DNA from: Corynebacterium sp. BD556
GTDB taxonomy: Bacteria; Actinomycetota; Actinomycetes; Mycobacteriales; Mycobacteriaceae
DNA: 64,000 bases
Direction of reading: 5' to 3'
Assembly (NCBI RefSeq): GCF_038452275.1
Contig: NZ_CP141643.1
Coordinates: forward strand, 1,178,001-1,242,000
Translations under genes and position numbers: made by a program
Part shown: positions 24,064 through 59,595 of the stretch, piece after piece
Layout: each line of letters starts with the position of its first letter
Position numbering within the stretch: the first letter of the stretch is position 1
The notes under the pieces: generated by a model
What the model was told of the DNA's origin: nothing
Database searches by the model: none
What the model saw: the letters and a program-made list of their open reading frames with translations, nothing else

Positions 24064-24233
24064 CAACCCACCTCAACATCCCTTGAACTACACACAAACA
24101 ATTAACTGTGAACTGTACACAGAAAACCTACATCCCTTTGCCAGAAAGATGCCCTAAGTGCTACAAAATGTGACCGAGCGCATAGGGTGGGAAACACTTC
24201 CCTCCCCCTTTGACCCCGACCAGGAAGACTCCC

Positions 24234-25847
24234 ATGTCAGGTTCCACGCAAACAGCCCCAACCCACCCCGAGAAGAAACCACCACAAGAAACAGCTGGCT
24301 TCCTCGGCGTCGTAGAAAAGCTAGGCAACAAACTTCCCGACCCCTTCTGGCTGTTTATCATCCTCTCCGGCCTCGTCGTCATCACCTCCCGGATCGGCTC
24401 CGCAGCCGGAATGCAAGCCGAAGACCCCGGCACCGGCGAACTAATCAAAGTTGAATCACTCGCCACCGAAGAAAACATCAAACGGATGGTCGCCGAAGCC
24501 GTCAACAACTTCATCACCTTCCCGCCCCTAGGCGTAATCCTCGCAGTGATGCTGGGTGTGGCCGTCGCCGAACAAACCGGGCTGCTCTCCGCCCTAGTGC
24601 GCGCCATGGTCGCCCGAGTCAGCCCCGTACTACTCACCTTCATGGTCGCGCTCGCCGGCGTCACCGGCTCAGTCGCATCCGACGCCATCTACGTCATCAT
24701 CATCCCGCTCGGTGCCATGGCCTTCTACGCAGTAGGCCGCTCCCCCATCGTCGGCGCCATGGTCGCCTTCGCCGCATCCTCCGCAGGCTTCAACGCCTCA
24801 CTGATCCTCAACATCACCGACCTTCTACTCGCCGGCATCTCAACCTCAGCAGCCGAAATCGTCGACCCCGACTATCAAGTCTCACCCGTAGCAAACATCT
24901 TCTTCGTCATCCCCTCAGCTATCGTCCTAGCCCTCATCATCACCGCAGTAACCGAACTATTCGTCGACAAGAAAGCACGCCAGCTTATCGACCACGACGA
25001 CCTCGAAGAAGACGAACTGACCTTCGACAACGCCACCGAAGGCGACAGACCAGCCGACGCAACCGACGACGATTTGTCGCTGTCGCCCACCGAGTCCAAA
25101 GCACTCGCCTTATCCGGTGTGGTGCTGCTAGTCTTCCTGGCCGCATTCTTCCTCCTGCTGTTCGTGCCGGGCTCACCCCTAGCCAACCCAGACGAAGGCT
25201 TCATGAAATCCCCGCTGATCACAGCCATCGCAGTACCAATCTCACTGTGCTTCTTCCTCTGCGGCCTCACCTACGGACTAACCGCACACACCATCACCTC
25301 CAGCGCCGACATCCCCGACATGATGGCCAAAGGACTAAAGACCCTGCTCCCAATGCTGGTGCTATTCTTCGCCGTCTCCCAATTCCTCGCCTGGTTCAAA
25401 TGGTCAAACCTCGGGGCATGGACCGCAATCCGCGGCGCCGAACTACTCCAGCGCTGGGACCTCCCAGTCATACTGCTCTTCGCCGGATTCGTCCTCATGG
25501 TCGCACTGATCAACCTGCTACTGACCTCCGGCTCCGCCCAATGGGCACTCATGGCACCCGTAGTCGTGCCGATGATGATGTACGTCGGCGTCTCCCCCGA
25601 AGTCACACAAATGCTATTCCGCATCGGCGACTCACCCACCAACATCATCACCCCGATGTCACCCTACTTCGCCCTCGCCCTGACCTTCCTCCAGCGCTAC
25701 TACAAAAAAGCCGGCGTGGGCACCCTCATGTCCCTCGCCCTGCCCTACTCCATCGCCATGGTCGTCGGCTGGTTCATCTTCTTCATCATCTGGTACTTCC
25801 TAGGCATCCCACTTGGCCCAGGCTCACCAATGACCTACGAAGGCTAA
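24234..25847 (+). CDS. AbgT-family transporter
   Basis: A 537-residue polytopic membrane protein of the AbgT family, whose members transport p-aminobenzoyl-glutamate or export sulfonamide-like compounds. About eleven hydrophobic segments are seen, starting at PFWLFIILSGLVVIT. Family signatures include GVAVAEQTGLLSALVR near residue 112 and the C-terminal GDSPTNIITPMSPYF near 468. An acidic loop (HDDLEEDELTFDN) joins the halves. The start is ATG 24234 with AGGAAG seven bases upstream. Its direction, import or export, cannot be told from sequence. Confidence 0.92.
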   Translation: MSGSTQTAPTHPEKKPPQETAGFLGVVEKLGNKLPDPFWLFIILSGLVVITSRIGSAAGMQAEDPGTGELIKVESLATEENIKRMVAEAVNNFITFPPLGVILAVMLGVAVAEQTGLLSALVRAMVARVSPVLLTFMVALAGVTGSVASDAIYVIIIPLGAMAFYAVGRSPIVGAMVAFAASSAGFNASLILNITDLLLAGISTSAAEIVDPDYQVSPVANIFFVIPSAIVLALIITAVTELFVDKKARQLIDHDDLEEDELTFDNATEGDRPADATDDDLSLSPTESKALALSGVVLLVFLAAFFLLLFVPGSPLANPDEGFMKSPLITAIAVPISLCFFLCGLTYGLTAHTITSSADIPDMMAKGLKTLLPMLVLFFAVSQFLAWFKWSNLGAWTAIRGAELLQRWDLPVILLFAGFVLMVALINLLLTSGSAQWALMAPVVVPMMMYVGVSPEVTQMLFRIGDSPTNIITPMSPYFALALTFLQRYYKKAGVGTLMSLALPYSIAMVVGWFIFFIIWYFLGIPLGPGSPMTYEG

Positions 25848-25947: not shown

Positions 25948-28900
25948 GGCTCATCCCCGCTCACGCGGGGAGCACACACATCCATGAGTACTCCCCTGTC
26001 ACTTGTGGGGCTCATCCCCGCTCACGCGGGGAGCACCAAGGACGCCGCCGCGGGAGACAACGAAGCCGGGGGCTCATCCCCGCTCACGCGGGGAGCACAC
26101 ACATCCATGAGTACTCCCCTGTCACTTGTGGGGCTCATCCCCGCTCACGCGGGGAGCACTCCACGCTGAGTGCCTATGCCAATGGCAGGACGGGCTCATC
26201 CCCGCTCACGCGGAGAGCACCCATTTTCCAGCTCTAGCGCGAGGCTGGCACGCGGCTCATCCCCGCTCACGCGGAGAGCACGGGCTAAACGAGCGTATAG
26301 ACCATCTGGAGTCGGGCTCATCCCCGCTCACGCGGGGAGCACTCAACCAGCTCACGGATCTGTCGACTGACCGCGGGCTCATCCCCGCTCACGCGGGGAG
26401 CACGCAGGTCGGTCTCGATCAGTTGTGCGATACCCAGGCTCATCCCCGCTCACGCGGGGAGCACTGGTCGCCTGGTCAGAGTTCCGAACAGGACCCGGGC
26501 TCATCCCCGCTCACGCGGGGAGCACTATCGGTTCAGTGGAGTGGGGCTGGAGGGGTGGGGCTCATCCCCGCTCACGCGGGGAGCACTATCGGTTCGGTGG
26601 AGTGGGGCTGGAGGGGTGGGGCTCATCCCCGCTCACGCGGGGAGCACGAGGAGGTCACGCCGTTCTCGCTGGTCACGGCGGGCTCATCCCCGCTCACGCG
26701 GGGAGCACCAAACACCAGGTGCGAGATTGTCGCCTCCACCCGGCTCATCCCCGCTCACGCGGGGAGCACGCGTGATGCGCTACACCGCCCCCTCTGGCAA
26801 GGGGCTCATCCCCGCTCACGCGGGGAGCACTCCGGTCTCTTGGTAGCTCATTTAGTACTCTCCGGCTCATCCCCGCTCACGCGGGGAGCACGATTCCGCA
26901 CCCTGCTCGATCTCACCTCCGCTGGGCTCATCCCCGCTCACGCGGGGAGCACGCGAGTACGACGCCCTGTGGTACGCCGCCTGGGGGCTCATCCCCGCTC
27001 ACGCGGGGAGCACCAACACCTGCGGTAGCGGCGCCGACCTTGAGAGGGCTCATCCCCGCTCACGCGGGGAGCACCTGTCCAGCCAGTTGCATACCGCCCC
27101 GGACGGGGGCTCATCCCCGCTCACGCGGGGAGCACCACGACGGTTCACCGCGCCCTGGGGGTGCTGCGGGCTCATCCCCGCTCACGCGGGGAGCACGGTG
27201 GGGCCGCTGCGGCTGCGTCGCACCCGCAGGGCTCATCCCCGCTCACGCGGGGAGCACCTCAGCTTCGGTCGCTGGGCTGGCGGTTCCATCGGCTCATCCC
27301 CGCTCACGCGGGGAGCACTTTGTGTGCGGGGTGCCATTGAACCTCGCTAGAGGCTCATCCCCGCTCACGCGGGGAGCACTGCAGCGGCGGTGGCTTGGTG
27401 CTCGGCCTCAGCGGCTCATCCCCGCTCATGCGGGGAGCACGCCGGATCAATCCCCGACAAATCCCACTCCCTCAGGCTCATCCCCGCTCACGCGGGGAGC
27501 ACGTGGTCATGCGGCTGTCCTTTCGGGTTGTGGGCGGCTCATCCCCGCTCACGCGGGGAGCACTGTCCTACGGCGTATCCGGCAGCCCCAACACGGGGCT
27601 CATCCCCGCTCACGCGGGGAGCACTCTGATTTCTGGACGTCGCCATGCTGGGGTAGGGGCTCATCCCCGCTCACGCGGGGAGCACGGAATAGAAATCATT
27701 AATCTGCCGCACCGCGACGGCTCATCCCCGCTCACGCGGGGAGCACACGATGGAAGATCGTGCACGCCTTCGTATTCAGGGCTCATCCCCGCTCACGCGG
27801 GGAGCACTGGTCCTTTCGGGGTTGTGGACTTGCGCCCGTCGGCTCATCCCCGCTCACGCGGGGAGCACATCTCGAGTGCGATCAAGTCACGGAACATCAT
27901 GGGCTCATCCCCGCTCACGCGGGGAGCACTTCTGTGCCCTCGAAGCACTGGGCCCGGTGTTGGGCTCATCCCCGCTCACGCGGGGAGCACTGACCCCGGA
28001 GCTAGTCGTGTCGAATGGGATGGGGCTCATCCCCGCTCACGCGGGGAGCACCAGCGTTGGTTGAAGAACGGAACGATGGATATGGGCTCATCCCCGCTCA
28101 CGCGGGGAGCACCCGTCCTCGATGCTGATCCCGTCGTCGGCTGGCGGCTCATCCCCGCTCACGCGGGGAGCACCGCCAGGGACGATCTGCGTCGTGCAGC
28201 GATCGCGGCTCATCCCCGCTCACGCGGGGAGCACTTAAGGAGCTCAGTGGTGAGGTTGACCAGCAGGGGCTCATCCCCGCTCACGCGGGGAGCACTCTTG
28301 TCAGGGCCTTCAAAAGCAATGAGCATGGGGCTCATCCCCGCTCACGCGGGGAGCACCCACCCAACGTACGCAGTAGTGTGGCAAAGGCGGGCTCATCCCC
28401 GCTCACGCGGGGAGCACTGGTGTGTTCCTGTCTTGCTGACACTCTTTAAGGGCTCATCCCCGCTCACGCGGGGAGCACTCGTGTTGTCGGGTTTTACGCT
28501 GACCCATCAGGGGCTCATCCCCGCTCACGCGGGGAGCACGCGCTTGATTTGCCGCGACCGCCTTTTAAAACGGGCTCATCCCCGCTCACGCGGGGAGCAC
28601 CCTGGGTGAGGCTATTAGTCGATGGTGAAATGCGGCTCATCCCCGCTCACGCGGGGAGCACTAGACGCACCGGAAGGGCAACTTTTTGAACTGCGGCTCA
28701 TCCCCGCTCACGCGGGGAGCACTGGAATGCCCGCGCACCGAGCGTTCACCAGCAGGGCTCATCCCCGCTCACGCGGGGAGCACTACAGACTCGTTCACAT
28801 CGGTCGCGCTCACAGCGGCTCATCCCCGCTCACGCGGGGAGCACGCGCAGCCTGTCCCGCCGACGGAGGGAACTCTGGGCTCATCCCCGCTCACGCGGGG

Positions 28901-31344
28901 AGCACCAGCCGCGCCGAGAACTGGGTGCCCTTCCCCAGGGCTCATCCCCGCTCACGCGGGGAGCACGCAAGTCGGGGTGGGTTGATCTGGAACGAATCGG
29001 GCTCATCCCCGCTCACGCGGGGAGCACCTCGCTGAGGATGGGCGCCCTGTCCTTGCGTCGGGCTCATCCCCGCTCACGCGGGGAGCACGTTTTCGAGCGG
29101 CCTGTTCTTCCTCGTGCAAAAGGCTCATCCCCGCTCACGCGGGGAGCACACCAGCGGATGCACGCGATTGCGCTTGACCCTCGGCTCATCCCCGCTCACG
29201 CGGGGAGCACATGTGCGATAAGATCGTCCTTGTGCCAGCGGGGGCTCATCCCCGCTCACGCGGGGAGCACGGCAAGTATGGATTGACTGGTGGAGCATCA
29301 TAAGGCTCATCCCCGCTCACGCGGGGAGCACTGTTTAGTCATTGAGGAACTCCTCTAGTCGCTGGGCTCATCCCCGCTCACGCGGGGAGCACCCAAGGGC
29401 ACCAAACTTGTCGTGCATGGCAAGCGGCTCATCCCCGCTCACGCGGGGAGCACTACCCGCCGCTACCTGGCGGACTTCATCACCGGGGCTCATCCCCGCT
29501 CACGCGGGGAGCACCCCGACAAGATCGACGGCACGTATGCCGCGATGGGCTCATCCCCGCTCACGCGGGGAGCACGCAGATAGGGAAAACCCTGGGCAGA
29601 CGCATTCGGGCTCATCCCCGCTCACGCGGGGAGCACAGTGGATCTAATTGCCCCACAGCCTGCCGGGGGGGCTCATCCCCGCTCACGCGGGGAGCACCCC
29701 CTTGCAGGATGAGTACGTTGTGCTTGGTATGGCTCATCCCCGCTCACGCGGGGAGCACTAATCAATAGAGACATTGTTTCCATTGCTTACAGGCTCATCC
29801 CCGCTCACGCGGGGAGCACTCTTCTTCTAACCCATCAAGTAAGAACATACTGGGCTCATCCCCGCTCACGCGGGGAGCACGGCACCGGCATCCCCAGTGA
29901 GGTGCTGGTGCCCGGCTCATCCCCGCTCACGCGGGGAGCACTGAAAATAGGGCGTGCTGGTACAGCAAAGACCGGGCTCATCCCCGCTCACGCGGGGAGC
30001 ACGCTTGTGGAGACCGGATTCATCCAATCTAAACCGGCTCATCCCCGCTCACGCGGGGAGCACGCGACTCCGAAGCCCTTCTGCTCTCTGCGTTAGGGCT
30101 CATCCCCGCTCACGCGGGGAGCACTTCCTGCGGGACATTCCACCGCTCTCTATACTGGGCTCATCCCCGCTCACGCGGGGAGCACTTCCTGCGGGACATT
30201 CCACCGCTCTCTATACTGGGCTCATCCCCGCTCACGCGGGGAGCACCGCCTGGAAACAGTTCAGCTCCCGCAGCTCGCGGGCTCATCCCCGCTCACGCGG
30301 GGAGCACGGGAGAGGTCTACAGCCAAACCCTCACCGATGGGGCTCATCCCCGCTCACGCGGGGAGCACGCACCGAAGTCAGAAAGATGCTGCGACTTATG
30401 GGGCTCATCCCCGCTCACGCGGGGAGCACGCGACTCCGAAGCCCTTCTGCTCTCTGCGTTAGGGCTCATCCCCGCTCACGCGGGGAGCACTCTATCGCCC
30501 CCAGTACGCAAAAATCTTCCGTGGGCTCATCCCCGCTCACGCGGGGAGCACTGGGGGTTAGTCCTCGTCTTCTTCGTCGTTGAGGGCTCATCCCCGCTCA
30601 CGCGGGGAGCACGATTCCTCCTTGTTGTTGACGCTTGCACCCTCGGGCTCATCCCCGCTCACGCGGGGAGCACCCGATGGTGTGTTCTTTTTCGCGCAAC
30701 GAGGAAGGCTCATCCCCGCTCACGCGGGGAGCACAGTCCCTCTGCCGCTGCCGCCGCCCCTTGTTCGGGCTCATCCCCGCTCACGCGGGGAGCACTGCAC
30801 CGGACTATTGATTGCCTGACGGAAGGCGGGCTCATCCCCGCTCACGCGGGGAGCACTAATAATTCCCGCACATCTTCCAGATGCGCCTGGGCTCATCCCC
30901 GCTCACGCGGGGAGCACAAAGTTTCCGAAACGTGATGGGGCAGTATTCGGGGCTCATCCCCGCTCACGCGGGGAGCACCAAGTCGTAGCAGTGTACTATC
31001 CTCCTCAGGAGGGCTCATCCCCGCTCACGCGGGGAGCACGCAGGAGGTGATTGTGCATGGCATTGTCCTAGGGGCTCATCCCCGCTCACGCGGGGAGCAC
31101 TACCTTAGTTACTACTCTAGTGAGGACAAGCTGGGCTCATCCCCGCTCACGCGGGGAGCACGTTCCCATTCGGTGACGAAACGGCGGACGCGGGGGCTCA
31201 TCCCCGCTCACGCGGGGAGCACCCTGGAGAGAAAGGAAATATCACAATGACATTGGGCTCATCCCCGCTCACGCGGGGAGCACTCCACTGTTCCTTCAGT
31301 TCTTGAATAACTTCTTGGCTCATCCCCGCTCACGCGGGGAGCAC
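25948..31344 (-). CRISPR. Type I-E-like CRISPR array, 89 repeats and 88 spacers
   Basis: A 28-nt repeat, on the plus strand starting GGCTCATCCCCGC and ending GCGGGGAGCAC with an internal hairpin, recurs every 61 bp; spacers are 33 nt except spacer 2 (34 nt). The reverse complement GTGCTCCCCGC...GGGGATGAGCC has the form of type I-E repeats, so crRNA is probably transcribed on the minus strand, with the leader expected on the right. Consistent with this, variant repeats occur toward the left: GGAGAGCAC in repeats 5 and 6 (26193 and 26254) and CTCATGCG in repeat 25 (27413). The base before GGC is usually G. No cas gene is present in the window. Three exact or near-exact spacer pairs and one adjacent identical pair occur. 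Confidence 0.98.
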
Positions 31345-31376
31345 TTCTCTAGACTGAGGAATTCCAGCAAGGGGTC
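31345..31376. other. Residual leader-side flank of the CRISPR array, including IS3 target duplication
   Basis: Only about 28 bp (TTCTCTAGACTGAGGAATTC...) lie between the last repeat and the 4-bp target duplication GGTC (31373-31376) of the IS3 element. No AT-rich leader or promoter is seen. On the other side of the IS3 element lies istB-like sequence, so the leader was already lost or moved before the IS3 insertion. Confidence 0.6.
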
Positions 31377-31403
31377 TGAACCCCGGAAAGTGGACACGGA
31401 GTT

Positions 31404-32306
31404 TTAATCAGATGCGGTTTTGAGTATAGCTGTTTCGGAAGATTCAAAGGCGTTCGGCGAACGATAGCCGCACCTCGAGTGCAGGCGTTTGGTGTTGTAG
31501 CGACTGCACCATTGGAACACGTCCCGGCGACACACCAGCTGACTGGCGAAAACAGGTGCATCTTGAAGGACTTCCCGTTTCAACGTGGCGTTGAACGACT
31601 CCGCCAGAGAATTATCCGCGCTGGTACCAATTGCTCCCATCGATTGGGTAACACCGAGACGTTCACATAGTCTTCGGTACCGATCAGAGGTGTATACACT
31701 GCCATGATCGGAGTGGAAAATCGCTCCGTCAAGCCCGCCACGGATCCCGTAAGCCATCATCAAAGCCTCTTCAACTAACTCCGTACGCATGTGGACGGCG
31801 ATCGCGAAACCGGTCAACTGCCGCGAGTAGCAGTCGATGACCGTCGCCAGGTACATATTCGACCCATCTGCAATCGGGAGGTAGGTGATATCGCCGACGT
31901 AGACCGTGTTTGGTTTCTCCGCGGTGAAACGGCGTGCGAGCAGATCCGGAAACGTCGGAGCGCGTTTCGCAGACACCGTGGTCTTTACGCGGCGTTTCTT
32001 GGTGTAGCCGAACAATTCCATCTGGCGCATCAGCCTGGCGGTGCGCTTGTGATTGAGGCGATCATCGCTGGTCGGATCCGAGTTGATGGCCGCTGTGATG
32101 CGTTTCGCCCCGTAACAGCCGTTCTCAGCTGTGAACACGGCCTTGATCCTCGCTCCCAGCGCCGCGTCAGCGACGAGGCGTCGCCGGCGGGCAGGAGCAG
32201 CAGATTTCCACTTGTAGTAGGAGGACCGGTTGATCTTCAGGACCTCACATAACCGCTTGACCTCGTAGAAGTCTCGGTGGTCATCAACGAACTGAAAGCG
32301 GTTCAC
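31404..32306 (-). CDS. IS3-family transposase OrfB (DDE domain)
   Basis: A 300-residue integrase-like transposase. An N-terminal HTH_21-type segment (DFYEVKRLCEVLKINRSS) precedes the rve core. Catalytic acids lie in VYVGDITYLPI, in FHSDHGSVYTS and in NSLAESFNATLKRE. It starts with GTG that overlaps the orfA stop by 4 bp; IS3 elements usually make an OrfAB fusion by -1 frameshifting, but simple coupling is also possible here. Confidence 0.93.
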   Translation of the reverse strand: MNRFQFVDDHRDFYEVKRLCEVLKINRSSYYKWKSAAPARRRRLVADAALGARIKAVFTAENGCYGAKRITAAINSDPTSDDRLNHKRTARLMRQMELFGYTKKRRVKTTVSAKRAPTFPDLLARRFTAEKPNTVYVGDITYLPIADGSNMYLATVIDCYSRQLTGFAIAVHMRTELVEEALMMAYGIRGGLDGAIFHSDHGSVYTSDRYRRLCERLGVTQSMGAIGTSADNSLAESFNATLKREVLQDAPVFASQLVCRRDVFQWCSRYNTKRLHSRCGYRSPNAFESSETAILKTASD

Positions 32307-32644
32307 CAGTTCGTCTCTTCCGCGAAATATTTGGCCGCCTTGCGCAGGATCTCTCGTTCTTCCCGTAGCGTGGCGTTTTCGCGTTCCAGCATGCGGATGC
32401 GTTCGGCATCGGAGAGTCCTTGAGCAGGAGTACGTTCGCTGTTGGCTGCGGCGATCGGGCTGGCGACTTTTTCACCGTTGGCGTTGGTTTTGGTGCCGGT
32501 GCCGAAGGCGTCGAGCCAGGTGCGCAGGGAGTTGCGGTTGACCCCGAGATCGGAGGCGATCGCGTTGATCGTGGCTCCAGGGGTCGACTCGTACAACGTC
32601 ACTGCGTCACGCTTAAACTGCTCGGTGTAGGTCTTGCGTGGCAT
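32303..32644 (-). CDS. IS3-family transposase OrfA (helix-turn-helix)
   Basis: A 113-residue DNA-binding partner of OrfB. It opens with MPRKTYTEQFKRDAV, followed by an HTH (INAIASDLGVNRNSLRTWL) and a C-terminal leucine-zipper-like coil (IRMLERENATLREEREIL). The start is ATG complementary to 32642-32644; an in-frame ATG six codons upstream lies close to the inverted repeat. Confidence 0.92.
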   Translation of the reverse strand: MPRKTYTEQFKRDAVTLYESTPGATINAIASDLGVNRNSLRTWLDAFGTGTKTNANGEKVASPIAAANSERTPAQGLSDAERIRMLERENATLREEREILRKAAKYFAEETNW

Positions 32645-32709
32645 GGTGGAAAGGTACCTCACTTCCCCAGCGAAATGCTGGTTTCAGCGTGTCCACCACC
32701 AAGGGGTCA

Positions 32710-33431
32710 GGTCCGTCTACTCAACCATCGCCGATCAAGCACGTAGCCAATCCTGGACATTCGAGGAGTACCTCGCCGCCGTGCTATCTGTCGAAGCGAC
32801 CGCCCGCGCGGAATCCGGAGCATCATTACGCGTCAAACGCGCCGGCTTTCCGGCCGTGAAAACCATCGCCGACTTCGACTTCACCGCACAACCCAGTATT
32901 GACCGCACTGAAATCGCACGCCTTGAAACCGGGGCCTGGGTCGCCACAGCTGAAAACGTCGTCCTGCTCGGCCCACCCGGAACCGGCAAAACCCACCTCG
33001 CCACCGCACTTGGCATCACAGCAGCGCAGCAAGGCTATCGCGTCCTCTTCGACACCGCCGCCGGGTGGGTAAACACCCTCACCGAAGCCCACAACACCGG
33101 CAAACTCGAAACGCTGCTGAAACGATTAAACCGCTACCACCTGCTCATCATCGACGAACTCGGCTACATTCCCGTCGAAGCTGACGCGGCGAACCTGTTT
33201 TTTCAACTCGTCTCCAGACGCTACGAACACGGCTCCATCATCGTGACCTCAAACCTAGCGTTTTCCCAATGGGCGCAATGCTTCGGCGACATCACAGTAG
33301 CCACCGCCATGGTCGACCGCATCGTCCACCACGCCAAAATCTTTCAACACCGAGGAGTAAGCCACCGCATCAAAGGACGCGAAATACCCGCACCAACAAC
33401 CCCCTCACCAACCCCACATCAGGCACAATAA
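32710..33431 (+). pseudogene. istB-like ATPase, 5'-truncated
   Basis: Codons for about 240 residues of an IstB/DnaC-like ATPase, from STIADQARSQSW on. Walker A is intact, GPPGTGKTHLA, and Walker B is LLIIDELGY. Compared with the copy at 48270-49064, about 25 N-terminal residues are missing and replaced by the end of IS3 element A, in frame from ATG 32634, which could give a chimeric product. Confidence 0.8.
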
Positions 33432-33495
33432 CAACGACCACACTGGGCTACATTTCAAAGAGCGCCAGTGGGCTACATTTCGAAGAGCGCTCACA
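32710..33495 (+). mobile_element. IS21-like element remnant (istB end)
   Basis: The 3' part of an IS21-like element: most of istB and the right terminus. Two copies of the terminal motif GGGCTACATTTCRAAGAGC (33446-33495 region) are 26 bp apart, as at IS21 ends. istA and the istB 5' end are absent. The terminus TGTGAGCGC abuts a truncated IS3-B copy at 33496, so the element had inserted into that IS3 copy. Confidence 0.8.
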
Positions 33496-34059
33496 CCACT
33501 TTTCCAACGCGGCACTGATGAATTCAGGCCCGTTATCCATCCGCAGCACCCGAGGCCGCCTACCACGGGTCAGGGTGATGACATCGAGCAATTCAGTGAC
33601 CGTTGAGGCATCGATGCGGCAGTCAACGATAAACCCAATATGTTCACGGGTGAACTCATCAATAACGTTGCAGACCTTGAAGGCGTGTCCGTAGTAGTCG
33701 GAGTCAAACTGGAAATCCAGAGCCCACACATCATCCGGGCATGTCGCTGGCTCGACTCGCGGGGTCGGATCGTTGAGGTTCTTCGGTTTTGCCTTCTTTC
33801 GTGGCATTACCCTTAGTCCTTCTTGGCGCCATAAGCGGCGAACAGCATCACGGCCGACGTCAAAGCCTTCGTCACGGGCTTTAACCCAGGCCCTCCGATA
33901 GCCCCACCGGGGAAAGCTAGCCGACCAGGCGTTAAGCCAGAGCCGCAGGTCGGCGTATTTATCAGTCGTCGCCGGATTCTTAGCTAACTGCTGGGACCGT
34001 TGAAATGAGCTTCGAGAAACCCCCACAATCAGGCACGCCCGACGCTGGGATAGACCCAT
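33496..34059 (-). pseudogene. IS3-family OrfB, 3'-truncated
   Basis: Encodes the N-terminal two-thirds of OrfB and ends at the segment DNGPEFISAALEKW, where the IS21-like terminus begins. It lacks the third catalytic acid present in the full copy at 44662-45471, so it cannot be active. Confidence 0.88.
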
Positions 34060-34103
34060 CGCCTCGATGAGGTGACCGACAGCGTCATAGCGCCTCGTGG
34101 GGT

Positions 34104-34388
34104 TTAGAAGTTTCCCTCAGCCAACTCCTTGAGCGCAGCCTTCTCCAACTCGGCTTCGCCCAACAACTTCTTGAGCTTGGCGTTTTCATCACGCAGCGCT
34201 TTAAGCTCCCTGGCTTGAGTTCGGTCCATCTGCCCGTACGTCTTCGACCACCGAGCAAGAGTTGCCTCACTGATCTGTAGCTGACGAGCCACATCGGCGT
34301 TGGTCTTACCTTCCGCCTTGAGCTTGGTAGCTTTCTCGAGCTTGACCACAATCTGTTCCGGGGTGTGTTTCTTAAACTTCTTCATCAT
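34104..34388 (-). CDS. IS3-family OrfA (in truncated element)
   Basis: A 94-residue helix-turn-helix protein identical in sequence to the OrfA of the complete copy (MMKKFKKHTPEQIVV, then ADVARQLQISEATLARW and a C-terminal coil). The reading frame is whole although its element is not. The GGGAAAC slippery sequence near its end is also kept. Confidence 0.85.
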   Translation of the reverse strand: MMKKFKKHTPEQIVVKLEKATKLKAEGKTNADVARQLQISEATLARWSKTYGQMDRTQARELKALRDENAKLKKLLGEAELEKAALKELAEGNF

Positions 34389-34523
34389 TGACCATCTTCC
34401 TACCCCACAGCGGGGCAATCCTGAAAGACACTCAAGTCAAGTGGCCCGAAAAACGCAGCCCAGTCCAGGCCCACCCGAACTACTACACGTTTCTTTAAAA
34501 AGTTCGGGACTAGCCTTTACATG

Positions 34524-37796: not shown

Positions 37797-40700
37797 CTAT
37801 TGGGCAATCAACCGCAGGATTCGATTCAAAACTTGTTCCTCGGCCATGCCCGATACCGCCTCTCGAAGTCGCTCGGCCTGAGCTGGAGAGTTCTTGTTTT
37901 TAAGGATTGCATCCACTATTTCATTAGTGTTGCCATACAGCCATTCCGTTGGATAAATGCGGTCGGCACCGGGCCAATTAAGAGCAAAGGGCACGGCACC
38001 TGAAGCTGCTCCATCCGCGATAGTTAGGTGAAAGGACTCAAAATCACTCACGGAAAGGACAATGCCTACGCTCTCATACCACGAATTCATATCCGAACCG
38101 AAGCCGTCGAAAACAACCGCACCGGGGTATTTTCGGTTAATCTCCTCGATTCTCCTGTACTGATCTTTAAAGTACCGCATCTCCTCCGGCCTATTTTTCA
38201 TCCAAGGGTAATCCTCCGGAGTTTTTCCTTTAATGCGTAGCTTGTATTCCGGGTCCTGTGAAAGCAGGCCGCTCAGGATGTCCACAGCCCGATCAAGACG
38301 CTTCGACTGGGGAACTATGCCTACCATTCCAAGAGTCTTCGCAGCCCTCGGCACCTTCGGCTTGGCCAGCCCCTTCAAATTGACAGCGTTCGGGATAACT
38401 ACTGTCTTCTCTTGCGGAATACCATGGCTGTGTACAGCCGCCGCTCGGATGAGATCACCGACGAAAATAAAGGCGTCTACGACTTCGCTGGCTATCTCTT
38501 TCAAGTACGGGCGAAAGAGCTCCTGCGAGTGAACTCTAACGAACATTTTCTGTGTAGCTCGAACTCGTTGCGAATACCAAACAGCATTGCCAAGGCCCCA
38601 TTCACAAAAGACAATATCCGCCTTTGCCAGCAGCTCCTCGGATTGGCTTTCGTTATGAGCAGTGTGGCTCTCCCACTCGTCTTTGAGAACGTGTGCTCCG
38701 GCTTTTTCAAGTGCAGCTAGCAGAGACTGAGCAAATTTAAGGTCATGGCCGGCAACCACTACTACTTTTCCGTGCAAATCGTCGGAAATTTGCCCGGGCG
38801 CCTTCGGAGGAGGATCATTCGCGAAAGGCGCGGTAATGACTACTTCTCGGTCGATTACGGGGGAGTTGTCTTGACTTGGATGAGCTGGTCGAATCAGCTC
38901 AGCAACCAGTTCGTAGGTTCCGCGCCCGTTCTTGTCAGCCTCGTCTCGCATTTCAACAACGGGGTCATCTATAGCGAAGAACTTCGGAGAACGGACGTGG
39001 ACCGCGGTGAACTCCCCAAAACGCATTGGAAGTAAAACGTCTTCAGCCCACGTACGACCGGAATTCTCATTGAACTGTACTGCGAAAACGTCCCCGCAGC
39101 TTGGCACATCCTGCGCGGTTGAAAGAACTTTTACACCGTGCGCTTCAAGGAAGTGCTCTTCAGATTCGGTCAAACCACTCCGTAGCACGGCCAGCGGAGG
39201 GACAGACTGGCTAATGCAGGCCCTTAATGTTCGCTCGCGCGCTTCATCGGAGGCATGGTTGGGCATGAACTGTGCGACGTAGCGGGCCCCTTCTAGGCCG
39301 CGAACCGCAATGCCAGCAGTTCGCACTAGGATCGGCAATGCGGATTCAGTGGTGTGGGAACGATAAATCGTCCGCATTTGACGCCAGATTTCCTCAAGTC
39401 GGCTAGATGGGATGCGCGTCCAGTGATACAACCATGCCCTGTGGTCCTGGTCCGAGTTAGAGTGCGCGATATTCGACCCTATTGTTTCGGCAATTCCTCT
39501 GCCGTAGGCGCTTAGCACCAATCCCCCACACGCCGCGATTTCCACCACCCGACGGGAGAACATGGTCGGTGAATTCAGCACGGAGTTGACATTGAGGTGG
39601 GCAAAATGAGTTCTGTACGACTTGACCACTTCCTGGTAAGGAAGTGCACCACTCACGAAACTTTGATACTCAACCGGGAATGTATAAGGGGAGTCAGGGA
39701 TAGATGCCTGCCGGTCATAGATTTCCAGTGGGTAGTTCGAAGCTTCAACAAGTAGCTTTTTTAAGGACGATGAGCGTTCTTTGTAGCGATCCCCGTAGTA
39801 GGAACCTGCGTAGGCGATCGAACGGTGGAAAGGGCGATCCGTCGGCAGAGGATTATGCAGTGCAGGCTGTGCATAAAACGGCAGTGCCGAGATCGTCTGG
39901 TTTCTCTGTCCCGGGGTCTGATGATACCGAGGAATCATGTTGGCATCCGTGGTAAGCACGTGGTCAAATAGAGCCGCATTTGGGGCGAACCGCGAAAAGT
40001 GGACTGGGTCCTCCTTGTTCCAAAATACGGTTGTTATCCCCCGTTCTTGGGCCGCTTTCAAAATCTTCCTCAAGTCTGCGCTTTCATCGTCGGAGTAATG
40101 CCCCACTCCCCGATGCCACTGTCCTCCATTTCCTTCCCAGGCGGACTCAACTAGGAGCATGTCGAGTGGAGGTTCGCTGTCAATTTGTTCACGCCAACGG
40201 TTCCTCTCGATAACTGTGATGTGAAAAGCCGACTCCAGCGTTGCGCGGGTGAACTCATCCGCAATGACTCCAACACGTAGATCACGGACGTAGCGAGGGG
40301 GGTTCCCATCCCTTAAAGCTTGATGATAATTGGAACGTGCAACGCCATGGGCGCTACGCATTCTCTCTCCGAGCCTTGCCCAAGAGCGTTCTGTGACCAC
40401 CCATAAACGTGCGCTACGGCCAAGATCTAATCGAAGATCCTGATCCTTAATTAGTCTGCTGAGAACGCGCGCCAAGTCTTTCGGATCTCCAGCCCGGAAA
40501 ACCAGGGCTCTTTGCTCGTTGCTTCCTGCTTGGTCGAGGTTCGGGGCGACGTCGGAAAGCACCGTAGCTCGGCCAGCAGCGAAAGACTCTAGCGGCTTGA
40601 GGGCACTGACTAATTCGGTGACTGGAGTTGATTTTCGAGGGCAACAGACGATGTCGAAAGTTGAATGCAAGCGAGGCATTTCATCTTGAGGAAAACGCCC

Positions 40701-42305
40701 CAGGAAAAGAGCATCTTTTTTTGTCAGCCCTAGCTGGGCAGCCTGCTTTTTAAGGTCACCTTCCGCCGCTCCTGAGCCAGCAATGACGACCTGGTGTTCT
40801 ACCCCCTGTTTCTTGAGTAGAGCTGCGGCCTCCAACAAGACGTCAAGTCCCTCATAATCGACGATGGAACCGGCAAAGCCAATAACCGGGACTTCCCTAG
40901 AGATACTCCTTGCAGACGCATAGCCTTCATCACGCGGAAACGGAAGAAAAGAGTCTGGATCAACGGCATTTGGTGCGAGATCAATTTTTTCGGCCGGAAC
41001 ACCTCGAGCAACCAATTCATCCTTCACCTGCTCGGTAATCGCAAACACCCGATCAGCTTCAGATGCGACGAATGACTCGATGCGACGCATTTCAGCGAAT
41101 CTTTCCGTCCCTTCAAAACCAGGTTTCAAAGATGCCTCTGTAAACTCCCACAACCCTCGCACCTCATAGACGAAAGGCACCCCTACCTTTCTCGCAGCAA
41201 TCAGTGCTGCGAGCGCGGTCCGGTAATTGGATGCAGCCTGAATGATGGAGGGACGCTGACGTCTGGCTTCTCGCACAAAGGCATCGGCGCACTGCAGCAC
41301 ATAGCGATCGAAAGGATCGCGGTTAAGGTTTCCACCGGTGAGGTGAACATAAGGGATCGAATCGAGTTCCTGGACGTAGCGAATAGGCTTAGGCTTAACA
41401 ACATCCGCCTTTGAATCCCACGGATACCCTGATCGTGCGACAACGACAACATCTAAACCACTGCTCTGAAGCCCGCGGGCGACACCCCGCGTACGTGTGG
41501 AGTACCCATTTGAGTTGAACACTGGTGTCTGATGGACGAAATACAACACTCGCGCTGGTTCCGGCACATACGCCGGGCCTTCACTTCGCGCTGGGATCTG
41601 GTTGTGCACATCGAACCGCGCCTCACCAAGAATCCTTTCCGCCAGGATCCTAACCTTGTCCGAGGATTGTGCGAGAAGGTCCTCCTGAGCTTCAATGAGC
41701 TCTGCTGCTGCACCAATTTTTCCTTCTCGATACCACAGTTGGTTGAGCTGTTTCTCAAAAGAATGAGAGTCATGCTGATTTCCGGCGGGGGTGACTCTTT
41801 CCGTTCCCTCAACTTCTTTGGTTTGGTTTGCTGGCTTTTGGGGCTCGATGGCAAGCGTAGAAGCTTTTCGGGACAATCCAGCCTTGAGCCTTTTATTGCC
41901 AGTGGTGAGAAGTGACCCGAGAGTACCTCTCGTCCTGACGAGGGCTCGCGTTGTTTCTTCTTTCGGGTTGCGGGCGAGACGACGCGAAAAGTTCACGGGA
42001 GCCACTAGTGCTTTTCCCAATCGCATAGTCTTGGATTCGCGCAAGTTCTGCAACTGCGTTTTCGCTTGTTTGTAATCGCTTTGCAAAGCTGAGTTCTTCT
42101 TTTTCAGCTCCGCCAGTCCTCGCTCTGCCTGTTGAAGCTTCTTGAGGGCGTCATTGCGGGCAGTTTCCGAGCGCACCAATGCTTCCGCTTTTTCTTCCTC
42201 ATTGAGCTGAAAAAACTTGGCGTAGGGCCCGCGCCGGTCCGCAACAGCTTCTGCTAGACGCATCTTCTTTAACTCGTTCATACTCCGAGACTCATCCGAA
42301 AACAC
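37797..42305 (-). CDS. Giant multidomain glycosyltransferase, three GT modules
   Basis: A protein of about 1,500 residues. After an N-terminal coiled coil (about 20-100) come a GT4-type module (about 250-645; FVYEVRGLWEF, VIGFAGSIVDYEGLDVLLEA, KPLESFAAG), a CgeB/DUF3880-type module (about 660-1010; GVIADEFTRATLESAF, SIAYAGSYYGDRYKER, VEIAACGGLVLSAYG) and a third GT4-type module (about 1190-1500; VVIPNAVNL, LGMVGIVPQSKRLDRAVDIL, VSDFESFHLTIADG). It probably adds several sugars, or repeat-unit parts, of a surface polymer on the inner membrane face. Start placed at GTG 42305 behind AAGGAG; 42347 and ATG 42281 are alternatives. It is divergent from the GT/hydrolase gene. Confidence 0.88.
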   Translation of the reverse strand: MFSDESRSMNELKKMRLAEAVADRRGPYAKFFQLNEEEKAEALVRSETARNDALKKLQQAERGLAELKKKNSALQSDYKQAKTQLQNLRESKTMRLGKALVAPVNFSRRLARNPKEETTRALVRTRGTLGSLLTTGNKRLKAGLSRKASTLAIEPQKPANQTKEVEGTERVTPAGNQHDSHSFEKQLNQLWYREGKIGAAAELIEAQEDLLAQSSDKVRILAERILGEARFDVHNQIPARSEGPAYVPEPARVLYFVHQTPVFNSNGYSTRTRGVARGLQSSGLDVVVVARSGYPWDSKADVVKPKPIRYVQELDSIPYVHLTGGNLNRDPFDRYVLQCADAFVREARRQRPSIIQAASNYRTALAALIAARKVGVPFVYEVRGLWEFTEASLKPGFEGTERFAEMRRIESFVASEADRVFAITEQVKDELVARGVPAEKIDLAPNAVDPDSFLPFPRDEGYASARSISREVPVIGFAGSIVDYEGLDVLLEAAALLKKQGVEHQVVIAGSGAAEGDLKKQAAQLGLTKKDALFLGRFPQDEMPRLHSTFDIVCCPRKSTPVTELVSALKPLESFAAGRATVLSDVAPNLDQAGSNEQRALVFRAGDPKDLARVLSRLIKDQDLRLDLGRSARLWVVTERSWARLGERMRSAHGVARSNYHQALRDGNPPRYVRDLRVGVIADEFTRATLESAFHITVIERNRWREQIDSEPPLDMLLVESAWEGNGGQWHRGVGHYSDDESADLRKILKAAQERGITTVFWNKEDPVHFSRFAPNAALFDHVLTTDANMIPRYHQTPGQRNQTISALPFYAQPALHNPLPTDRPFHRSIAYAGSYYGDRYKERSSSLKKLLVEASNYPLEIYDRQASIPDSPYTFPVEYQSFVSGALPYQEVVKSYRTHFAHLNVNSVLNSPTMFSRRVVEIAACGGLVLSAYGRGIAETIGSNIAHSNSDQDHRAWLYHWTRIPSSRLEEIWRQMRTIYRSHTTESALPILVRTAGIAVRGLEGARYVAQFMPNHASDEARERTLRACISQSVPPLAVLRSGLTESEEHFLEAHGVKVLSTAQDVPSCGDVFAVQFNENSGRTWAEDVLLPMRFGEFTAVHVRSPKFFAIDDPVVEMRDEADKNGRGTYELVAELIRPAHPSQDNSPVIDREVVITAPFANDPPPKAPGQISDDLHGKVVVVAGHDLKFAQSLLAALEKAGAHVLKDEWESHTAHNESQSEELLAKADIVFCEWGLGNAVWYSQRVRATQKMFVRVHSQELFRPYLKEIASEVVDAFIFVGDLIRAAAVHSHGIPQEKTVVIPNAVNLKGLAKPKVPRAAKTLGMVGIVPQSKRLDRAVDILSGLLSQDPEYKLRIKGKTPEDYPWMKNRPEEMRYFKDQYRRIEEINRKYPGAVVFDGFGSDMNSWYESVGIVLSVSDFESFHLTIADGAASGAVPFALNWPGADRIYPTEWLYGNTNEIVDAILKNKNSPAQAERLREAVSGMAEEQVLNRILRLIAQ

Positions 42306-42408
42306 AGTCCACTCCTTGCAGATGCTAAACCCTCGTCTTATGTCCACCAGAATTCGCGAACTCCAACTCTGGCATCATTCGCGTCAATGTTAGTACGGGT
42401 TTTACCCG

Positions 42409-44253: not shown

Positions 44254-44332
44254 TGGACTGGGCTGCGTTTTTCGGGCCACTTGACTTGAGTGTCTTTCAG
44301 GATTGCCCCGCTGTGGGGTAGGAAGATGGTCA

Positions 44333-44617
44333 ATGATGAAGAAGTTTAAGAAACACACCCCGGAACAGATTGTGGTCAAGCTCGAGAAAGCTACCAAGCT
44401 CAAGGCGGAAGGTAAGACCAACGCCGATGTGGCTCGTCAGCTACAGATCAGTGAGGCAACTCTTGCTCGGTGGTCGAAGACGTACGGGCAGATGGACCGA
44501 ACTCAAGCCAGGGAGCTTAAAGCGCTGCGTGATGAAAACGCCAAGCTCAAGAAGTTGTTGGGCGAAGCCGAGTTGGAGAAGGCTGCGCTCAAGGAGTTGG
44601 CTGAGGGAAACTTCTAA
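44333..44617 (+). CDS. IS3-family transposase OrfA
   Basis: A 94-residue helix-turn-helix protein with a C-terminal coil (ELKALRDENAKLKKLLGEAEL). Start ATG 44333, with AGGAAG upstream. Near its end, G GGA AAC at 44605-44611 is a canonical -1 slippery heptamer; shifting there leads into the orfB frame (CTT CTA AAC CCC), which would make the OrfAB fusion transposase. Confidence 0.93.
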   Translation: MMKKFKKHTPEQIVVKLEKATKLKAEGKTNADVARQLQISEATLARWSKTYGQMDRTQARELKALRDENAKLKKLLGEAELEKAALKELAEGNF

Positions 44618-44661
44618 ACCCCACGAGGCGCTATGACGCTGTCGGTCACCTCATCGAGGCG

Positions 44662-45471
44662 ATGGGTCTATCCCAGCGTCGGGCGTGCCTGATTGTGGGG
44701 GTTTCTCGAAGCTCATTTCAACGGTCCCAGCAGTTAGCTAAGAATCCGGCGACGACTGATAAATATGCCGACCTGCGGCTCTGGCTTAACGCCTGGTCGG
44801 CTAGCTTTCCCCGGTGGGGCTATCGGAGGGCCTGGGTTAAAGCCCGTGACGAAGGCTTTGACGTCGGCCGTGATGCTGTTCGCCGCTTATGGCGCCAAGA
44901 AGGACTAAGGGTAATGCCACGAAAGAAGGCAAAACCGAAGAATCTCAACGATCCGACCCCGCGAGTCGAGCCAGCGACATGCCCGGATGATGTGTGGGCT
45001 CTGGATTTCCAGTTTGACTCCGACTACTACGGACACGCCTTCAAGGTCTGCAACGTTATTGATGAGTTCACCCGTGAACATATTGGGTTTATCGTTGACT
45101 GCCGCATCGATGCCTCAACGGTCACTGAATTGCTCGATGTCATCACCCTGACCCGTGGTAGGCGGCCTCGGGTGCTGCGGATGGATAACGGGCCTGAATT
45201 CATCAGTGCCGCGTTGGAAAAGTGGGCGAAGGAAGAAGACACGATTCGGTCGTTCATTCCGCCTGGACAGCCGTGGCATAACGGGTTTGTGGAATCCCTT
45301 CACAATCGGATGCGCGATGAACTTTTCGAACAGGAATGCTTCCTCGACGTTGCCCACGCGCGTCACTGTGTGGGCCTATGGTCGGACCGGTACAATACGT
45401 ACCATCCTCACTCGGCGCTAGGATTCATCGCCCCAGAGGAATACAAGAAACAATGGTTACAAGCCGCTTAA
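44662..45471 (+). CDS. IS3-family transposase OrfB (DDE domain)
   Basis: A 269-residue integrase-core protein. Catalytic acids lie in VWALDFQFDSDYYG, in VLRMDNGPEFISAAL and in NGFVESLHNRMRDEL. It opens as MGLSQRRACLIVGVS, but the frame is open upstream to the frameshift site at 44605, so the natural product is probably OrfAB. It is full length and likely functional. Confidence 0.93.
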   Translation: MGLSQRRACLIVGVSRSSFQRSQQLAKNPATTDKYADLRLWLNAWSASFPRWGYRRAWVKARDEGFDVGRDAVRRLWRQEGLRVMPRKKAKPKNLNDPTPRVEPATCPDDVWALDFQFDSDYYGHAFKVCNVIDEFTREHIGFIVDCRIDASTVTELLDVITLTRGRRPRVLRMDNGPEFISAALEKWAKEEDTIRSFIPPGQPWHNGFVESLHNRMRDELFEQECFLDVAHARHCVGLWSDRYNTYHPHSALGFIAPEEYKKQWLQAA

Positions 45472-58656: not shown

Positions 58657-59595
58657 CTAGTGGCCCTCAAGCAAACTTGCGACGATCCCATCGAGAATGT
58701 CTTTCTCGCTGATGACCACGGATTGCAAGCCGGAGGATTCCGCTAGATCGAGGATTTCCTCCACGATGAGCGAGCCGGCTGCAATGACGTCTGCGCGGCC
58801 GGGGTGGATTACCGGGTTGGCGCGGCGCTCGTCGGCAGTTTGCTTGCGCAGGGTGCGTGTGGTGGTGCGCAATGCGTCGATAGGCAACTCCGACATGTGA
58901 ATGCGTTGCGGTTCGTACATGTCGAGTCCTTGGGTGAGGGCTGACAAGGTGGTGAAGGTGCCGGCGCAGCCGATGAAGGTGCGGGAGGCGTCGATAAGCG
59001 AGGCGACCTGCGTCAGCCTCTCGCGTACATAGGCGCGCGTCTGTGCGGTCTCGTCCTCGGTGGGCGGGTCGGACTGTAAGAAGCGCTCAGTCAACCGCAC
59101 GCAGCCCATGCGCGTGGAGATGGCGTCTTGTGCGGTGACGAACTCCGTGGAGCCGCCGCCTAAGTCGATGACGCAAAACGGGCCGCGTTGCGGGTCAAGA
59201 TCCGCCGTAGCACCAGCAAACGACAGTTTCGCTTCTTCTGCGCCGCTAATGACGTCGGCGTGTTTGCCCACTTCGACGCGGCTGAGCAGGGCGCGCGTCA
59301 TGGCGAAGAACTCATCGCGGTTTTTCACATCACGCATCGCGGACGTTGCCACCATACGCACCCTTTTGACCCCTTCGCGCACCATCTCATCGACGTATCC
59401 GGCAAGCGCAACCCTCGTGCGCTCAATCGCCTCGGGGGCAAGCTCACCTGATTCGTCGACGCCTTGACCCAAACGAACGATGGTGTTGCGGCGCGAAATC
59501 TCACTCAGGCTGCCGTCAGGGTTGACCTCAACGATGAGCAGGCGGATGGAATTGGTGCCGCAATCCACCCCCGCTACGCGCAGGGAATCAGTCAC
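58657..59595 (-). CDS. Ppx/GppA phosphatase (exopolyphosphatase)
   Basis: A 312-residue member of the ASKHA superfamily that releases phosphate from polyphosphate or converts pppGpp to ppGpp. The phosphate-1 loop is VDCGTNSIRLLIVEV near residue 9, phosphate-2 VIDLGGGSTEFV near 142, and IGCAGTFTTLSAL near 208. It is the short form (about 310 residues) typical of actinobacterial Ppx proteins. It overlaps the upstream DUF501 gene by 4 bp (59592-59595) and so is coupled to it. Confidence 0.92.
   Translation of the reverse strand: MTDSLRVAGVDCGTNSIRLLIVEVNPDGSLSEISRRNTIVRLGQGVDESGELAPEAIERTRVALAGYVDEMVREGVKRVRMVATSAMRDVKNRDEFFAMTRALLSRVEVGKHADVISGAEEAKLSFAGATADLDPQRGPFCVIDLGGGSTEFVTAQDAISTRMGCVRLTERFLQSDPPTEDETAQTRAYVRERLTQVASLIDASRTFIGCAGTFTTLSALTQGLDMYEPQRIHMSELPIDALRTTTRTLRKQTADERRANPVIHPGRADVIAAGSLIVEEILDLAESSGLQSVVISEKDILDGIVASLLEGH

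What the first reader, a model, noticed from the sequence alone, without database searches (positions are those of the whole stretch)
25948..31344. Very large orphan type I-E-like CRISPR array without cas genes
The array has 89 repeats and 88 spacers, with exact 61-bp spacing except one spacer. No cas gene is found in the window on either side; the left neighbour is a transporter gene, the right is IS debris and a polysaccharide locus. Near-uniform repeats argue that it was active until recently. Either cas lies elsewhere in the genome or it was lost when the locus was rearranged.
Basis: partly seen in the sequence, partly recalled or inferred. Interest (0 to 1): 0.7.

Follow-up and report, generated by a model that had tools for sequence, protein, structure and literature searches.

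The report
CRISPR array stranded by IS-mediated deletion
A large, well-preserved bacterial immune-memory array (88 stored phage fragments) sits in a complete Corynebacterium genome in which no gene of the machinery that would read it was found, most likely because recombination between mobile elements deleted that machinery; this is a clean but ordinary example of a known kind of loss.

Summary
In detail: 89 repeats and 88 spacers at 25948-31344, with 86 of 89 repeats identical. Three spacers, not one, depart from the 61-bp period. The host is a complete single-contig Corynebacterium genome (2.35 Mb). The repeat occurs nowhere else in it, and no Cas7e, Cas1, Cas3-HD or Cas3/Cas8e, nor any trace of the operon at DNA level, was found. 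The repeat is type I-E: 15 of 17 Corynebacterium genomes with the identical 28-mer carry Cas7e. Polarity puts the leader on the right, where relatives carry the cas operon. Here only 27 nt survive before an IS3-family element (31372-32714). That IS has at least 24 near-identical copies, normally with 3-bp target duplications. This copy has none (aag/gtc), and its other end lies inside a broken IS21; no copy examined carries the reciprocal flank. Best explanation: recombination between two IS3 copies deleted the leader and the cas operon. Four spacers match actinobacterial phages; none is self-targeting or anti-cas. The array is probably a dead immune record: a new member of a known kind (IS-generated orphan CRISPR), of low to moderate interest.

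The parts
25948..31344 (-). CRISPR array, 89 repeats of 28 bp and 88 spacers; canonical repeat GTGCTCCCCGCGTGAGCGGGGATGAGCC on the minus strand, old end on the left
   Evidence: polarity from relatives
31345..31371 (-). 27-nt remnant between the last repeat and the IS; probably the rest of a broken spacer, no similarity to leaders of relatives
31372..32714 (-). IS3-family element (1343 bp) with no target duplication; transposase frames 31404-32306 and 32303-32662 read toward the array
32715..33496 (+). right part of an IS21-family element (istB), left part missing
33497..34468 (-). truncated second IS3-type element cut by the IS21 end (a longer copy lies at 44303-45471)
24210..25847 (+). AbgT-family transporter, left neighbour of the array

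Best explanation
[quoted passage not shown] In intact Corynebacterium relatives the order, read in the window's orientation, is array - leader - cas2 - cas1 - cas6e - cas5e - cas7e - cse2 - cas8e - cas3. One copy of a highly amplified IS3-family element inserted at the leader-proximal end of the array (probably in a spacer) and another in an IS21 farther to the right. Homologous recombination between the two removed everything between them and left one hybrid IS3 without a target duplication. What remains is a record of past phage encounters that can neither gain spacers nor be processed into crRNA by its own system; read-through from the IS3 transposase genes may still transcribe it. Shown: the array, its subtype and polarity, failure to find cas genes in the assembly, absence of a recognisable leader, and the missing target duplication with mismatched flanks. 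Inferred: that the cas operon lay in the lost stretch, that recombination rather than a transposase-made adjacent deletion did it, and functional silence.
For: Array and uniqueness of the repeat. No Cas7e, Cas1, Cas3-HD, Cas3+Cas8e or operon DNA in the complete genome, while Cas7e rings in 100 of 242 congeners. Identical repeat next to a full I-E operon in G001; 15 of 17 genomes with the repeat have Cas7e. C. senegalense shows the intact layout with cas on the side where the window has IS elements. The IS3 has 23 further full-length copies; 18 of 25 copies read have a 3-bp duplication, the array copy has aag/gtc. Its right flank is the middle of an IS21 that reads CGACAAC|GTCTACTC when intact. 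No copy examined has the reciprocal flanks. Precedent for IS-mediated CRISPR deletion: PMC3784566.
Against: No sister strain with the same spacers and an intact operon was available, so the deletion is not seen directly. Only 40 of 79 first-look IS candidates were scored, so a reciprocal junction may be unseen. The junction lies at a 1.3-kb repeat present many times, where assemblies can misjoin. Relatives carry their cas loci without any shared flanking genes.
Confidence: 0.85

Rival explanations
1. The array is still served in trans by a cas operon outside the assembly (for example on a plasmid), or by one that the searches missed.
For: Plasmids can be lost from assemblies. The repeats are nearly uniform. 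PF01867 detects Cas1e only weakly and the Cas3+Cas8e query had no positive control in its call.
Against: The assembly is one contig rated 100% complete. The Cas7e model detects I-E systems in 100 congeners with E-values mostly below 1e-70 but nothing here. No recognisable leader remains to support acquisition.
Confidence: 0.06
2. The array-IS3 junction is an assembly misjoin at a repeated IS, and the array's true neighbour is elsewhere.
For: The IS3 is 1.3 kb long and present at least 24 times almost identically; misjoins favour such places. The missing duplication would follow.
Against: None of the copies examined carries the flank that a swap would create. A misjoin would not explain the failure to find cas genes in the whole assembly.
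Confidence: 0.06
3. The array was cut off by a transposase-made adjacent deletion or by other rearrangement rather than by IS3-IS3 recombination; the outcome is the same.
For: An adjacent deletion also leaves an IS without target duplication. In L066 a second array with this repeat is cut inside a repeat with no IS at the edge, so other routes exist in the genus.
Against: The IS21 side shows exactly the gtc that a normal 3-bp duplication would leave beside an inserted IS3, though any site would offer three bases there.
Confidence: 0.25
4. The orphan array is kept as an anti-cas guard, as described for E. coli I-F orphan arrays.
For: Precedent in E. coli (Almendros et al. 2016 as described in PMC8616872). 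The IS3 genes read toward the array, so it could be transcribed.
Against: No spacer resembles the cas loci of 15 relatives much beyond what shuffled spacers give (best 9 mismatches of 33).
Confidence: 0.01

Closest known systems
Type I-E CRISPR-Cas of Corynebacterium (G001, C. senegalense G147, C. striatum PMC9944170)
   Same: Identical repeat (G001) or one differing in the loop (C. senegalense), 33-nt spacers, same first-spacer-base bias, similar array length
   Different: No leader and no cas genes found here
IS-mediated CRISPR-Cas deletions in Staphylococcus epidermidis (PMC3784566)
   Same: Loss of CRISPR function through deletions attributed to IS elements
   Different: Those were selected in the laboratory and removed the whole locus; here a natural genome keeps the array
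Orphan CRISPR arrays, including E. coli I-F anti-cas arrays (PMC8616872, PMC12814883)
   Same: Array with no cas locus found in the genome
   Different: 88 spacers, whereas the E. coli case is a small array; no anti-cas spacers found here

Membership tests
CRISPR array | Near-identical repeats at regular spacing with unique spacers | tested here: met
   89 repeats, 88 spacers, 85 of 88 spacings 61 bp
CRISPR array | Spacers derived from mobile elements | tested here: met
   Spacers 14 and 8 in one gene of Corynebacterium phage C3PO, spacers 54 and 80 in Microbacterium phages; most spacers have no known source
Type I-E CRISPR-Cas | I-E repeat | tested here: met
   Identical repeat beside I-E cas genes in relatives
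Type I-E CRISPR-Cas | Cascade, Cas3, Cas1e-Cas2e present | tested here: not met
   the locus is thus a remnant, not a system
Type I-E CRISPR-Cas | Leader next to the newest repeat | tested here: not met
   27 nt unlike relatives' leaders, then IS3
Orphan CRISPR array | No cas locus in the genome | tested here: met
   within the limits of one assembly
IS-mediated deletion scar | IS copy lacking its usual target duplication, with flanks from two sites | tested here: met
Orphan CRISPR with anti-cas spacers | Spacers match cognate cas genes | tested here: not met
   Best match 9 mismatches in 223 kb from cas loci of 15 relatives

The most novel reading that the evidence does not exclude
The array is still transcribed from the IS3 transposase genes that read into it and its RNAs act without their own Cas proteins, either with an effector acquired in trans or in a non-immune role, so that selection keeps 89 near-perfect repeats.
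Probability: 0.03. Interest if true: 0.6.

Novelty: new member of a known kind. Interest (0 to 1): 0.25.

Why it matters
It is a clean natural case in which the event that orphaned a large array can be read from the DNA: a non-duplicated IS3 whose two flanks come from different sites. It shows how an IS burst can remove adaptive immunity while leaving a long spacer record, useful as a frozen phage history and for studying cas loss. It changes no general view: IS-mediated loss and orphan arrays are documented.

Tried and rejected
Cas operon elsewhere in the genome: three cas family models, a Cas3+Cas8e protein query and operon DNA, all negative. Second array with the same repeat: none. Simple IS3 insertion: rejected, no target duplication. 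Inversion between IS3 copies: no reciprocal flank in the copies examined. Anti-cas spacers: no. Self-targeting: no match beyond chance (best E 0.59). Synteny of array flanks with the cas loci of 15 relatives: nothing shared but one weak ABC-type match in L110. Spacer search over 242 Corynebacterium genomes: only weak hits in G095 (E 2.6e-5 and 1.7e-4), and only two candidates per genome were scored, so it is insensitive. Exact pattern of spacer 14 in viral contigs: none. Plasmid BLAST of the array gave mostly diffuse 60-80% matches in Streptomyces and similar, apparently repeat-driven. Rfam: nothing. PADLOC on nine window proteins: nothing.

Full report
Observation. The array is real. A script count gives 89 copies of GGCTCATCCCCGCTCACGCGGGGAGCAC from 25948 to 31344 and 88 spacers. 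86 repeats are identical, repeats 5 and 6 share one substitution and repeat 25 has another. Spacers 1/3, 68/74 and 69/70 are identical and 10/11 differ by one base. Over the whole genome the repeat, with up to three mismatches, is found at these 89 places only.

Genome. The window is G000:C1:1178001-1242000 of a one-contig, 2,349,779-base genome rated 100% complete. The nearest named relatives of the neighbouring transporter gene are all Corynebacterium; the genus search covered 242 genomes. I could not name the species.

Cas genes. Cas7e (PF09344) is not found in the genome, while the same model rings in 100 of 242 genomes of the genus. Cas1 (PF01867) and the Cas3 HD domain (PF18019) are not found. 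PF01867 detects Cas1e only weakly (E about 1e-5 to 1e-7 in I-E loci), so the claim rests mainly on Cas7e and Cas3. The joined Cas3+Cas8e proteins of relative G001 find nothing (no positive control in that call), and 6.5 kb of its cas operon DNA finds only 21-22-base chance matches.

Subtype and polarity. The exact 28-mer occurs in 17 of 242 genomes; 15 of them have Cas7e, the exceptions being this genome and G195. In G001 the eight genes beside it are matched by NCBIfam models of Cas2e, Cas1e, Cas6e, Cas5e, Cas7e, Cse2, Cse1 and Cas3. The canonical repeat GTGCTCCCCGCGTGAGCGGGGATGAGCC therefore lies on the minus strand here, with the leader expected on the right. The repeat folds into a 7-bp GC-rich hairpin. 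Repeat variants lie only in the left third, as expected of the old end.

What replaced the leader. Leaders of the cas-bearing relatives mostly end in forms of CTGTTCAGCAAGT or ..GGGAAGG before the first repeat. The window has CTTGCTGGAATTCCTCAGTCTAGAGAA, 27 nt, unlike any of them (4-8 of 27 identities to those; 10 to the other orphan, L066; shuffled sequence does as well), and then an IS3-family element. The 27 nt are most simply the remainder of one more spacer; a diverged leader end cannot be fully excluded.

The scar. The IS3 spans 31372-32714, as defined by 23 further full-length copies in the genome at about 99-100% identity. Of 25 copies whose flanks I read, 18 have a 3-bp target duplication; the array copy has aag on the left and gtc on the right (tally by eye). 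On its right the sequence enters the middle of an IS21 istB gene; intact copies elsewhere read CGACAAC|GTCTACTC at that point. The IS21 in turn ends inside a further, truncated transposase gene. Neither reciprocal flank was seen at the copies examined, although only 40 of 79 first-look candidates were scored. This is the expected product of recombination between an IS3 in the array and an IS3 in the IS21, with loss of what lay between. An adjacent deletion made by the transposase would look alike and cannot be excluded.

Age. 3 of 89 repeats are variant; in cas-bearing relatives the figure ranges from 0 of 79 to 8 of 31. The array shows no extra decay, so the loss is probably recent. This is inference, not a date.

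Targets. Spacer 14 matches gene gp55 of Corynebacterium phage C3PO with 4 mismatches, and spacer 8 matches the same gene with 8; the lowest of 264 shuffled spacers was 9. Spacer 54 matches a Microbacterium phage terminase and spacer 80 a phage DNA polymerase I gene, each with 4 mismatches. Spacers 14, 54 and 80 have A before the first base of the match, and in the spacers this first base is C in 62 of 88, the same bias as in cas-bearing relatives; that fits an I-E PAM ending in A-C, from few cases. No spacer targets the own genome beyond chance or relatives' cas loci.

How it works now. Without a leader it should gain no spacers, and without Cas6e and Cascade it should give no I-E interference (established knowledge of type I-E). 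The IS3 transposase genes read toward the array and no minus-strand terminator-like site was found between, so read-through transcription is possible but untested.

Comparison. Loss of CRISPR-Cas through IS elements is documented: S. epidermidis escapers carried IS431- and IS256-mediated deletions (PMC3784566). Orphan arrays are substantial in number (PMC12814883) and can act in special cases such as the E. coli anti-cas arrays (PMC8616872). In C. striatum, I-E loci with up to 117 spacers lie near IS21, IS30 and IS481 transposases (PMC9944170). The present case belongs to this known kind.

Verdict. Real, explained, a well-preserved example of an IS-made orphan array; interest 0.25.

Noticed in passing
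L066:7571-8060 (MAG Corynebacterium sp. S30M_St_41; probably the same genome as G195): A second orphan-looking array with the identical repeat (8 repeats), lying between a tRNA with anticodon CAT and a helicase fragment, its leader side cut inside a repeat with no IS at the edge. G195 has no Cas7e or Cas1 match.
   Followed up: partly
window 31372-32714 and G000 at large: The genome is heavily loaded with IS elements: at least 24 full-length copies of one IS3-family element at about 99-100% identity, 7 of 25 copies read lacking a target duplication, so other recombinational losses are likely.
   Followed up: partly
window 25848-58656 against L039:11656-18910: In C. senegalense the AbgT gene and the ppx-like gene (window 58657-59595) are about 7 kb apart with other genes between; in the window 33 kb with the array, IS elements and a polysaccharide-type locus lie there, suggesting a variable site.
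   Followed up: no
window 37797-42347: A 1516-residue protein with several glycosyltransferase matches, an unusually long fused enzyme beside the IS cluster.
   Followed up: no
window 26498-26619: Neighbouring spacers 10 and 11 differ by one base: a duplicated unit that then mutated, or two samplings of related phages.
   Followed up: no
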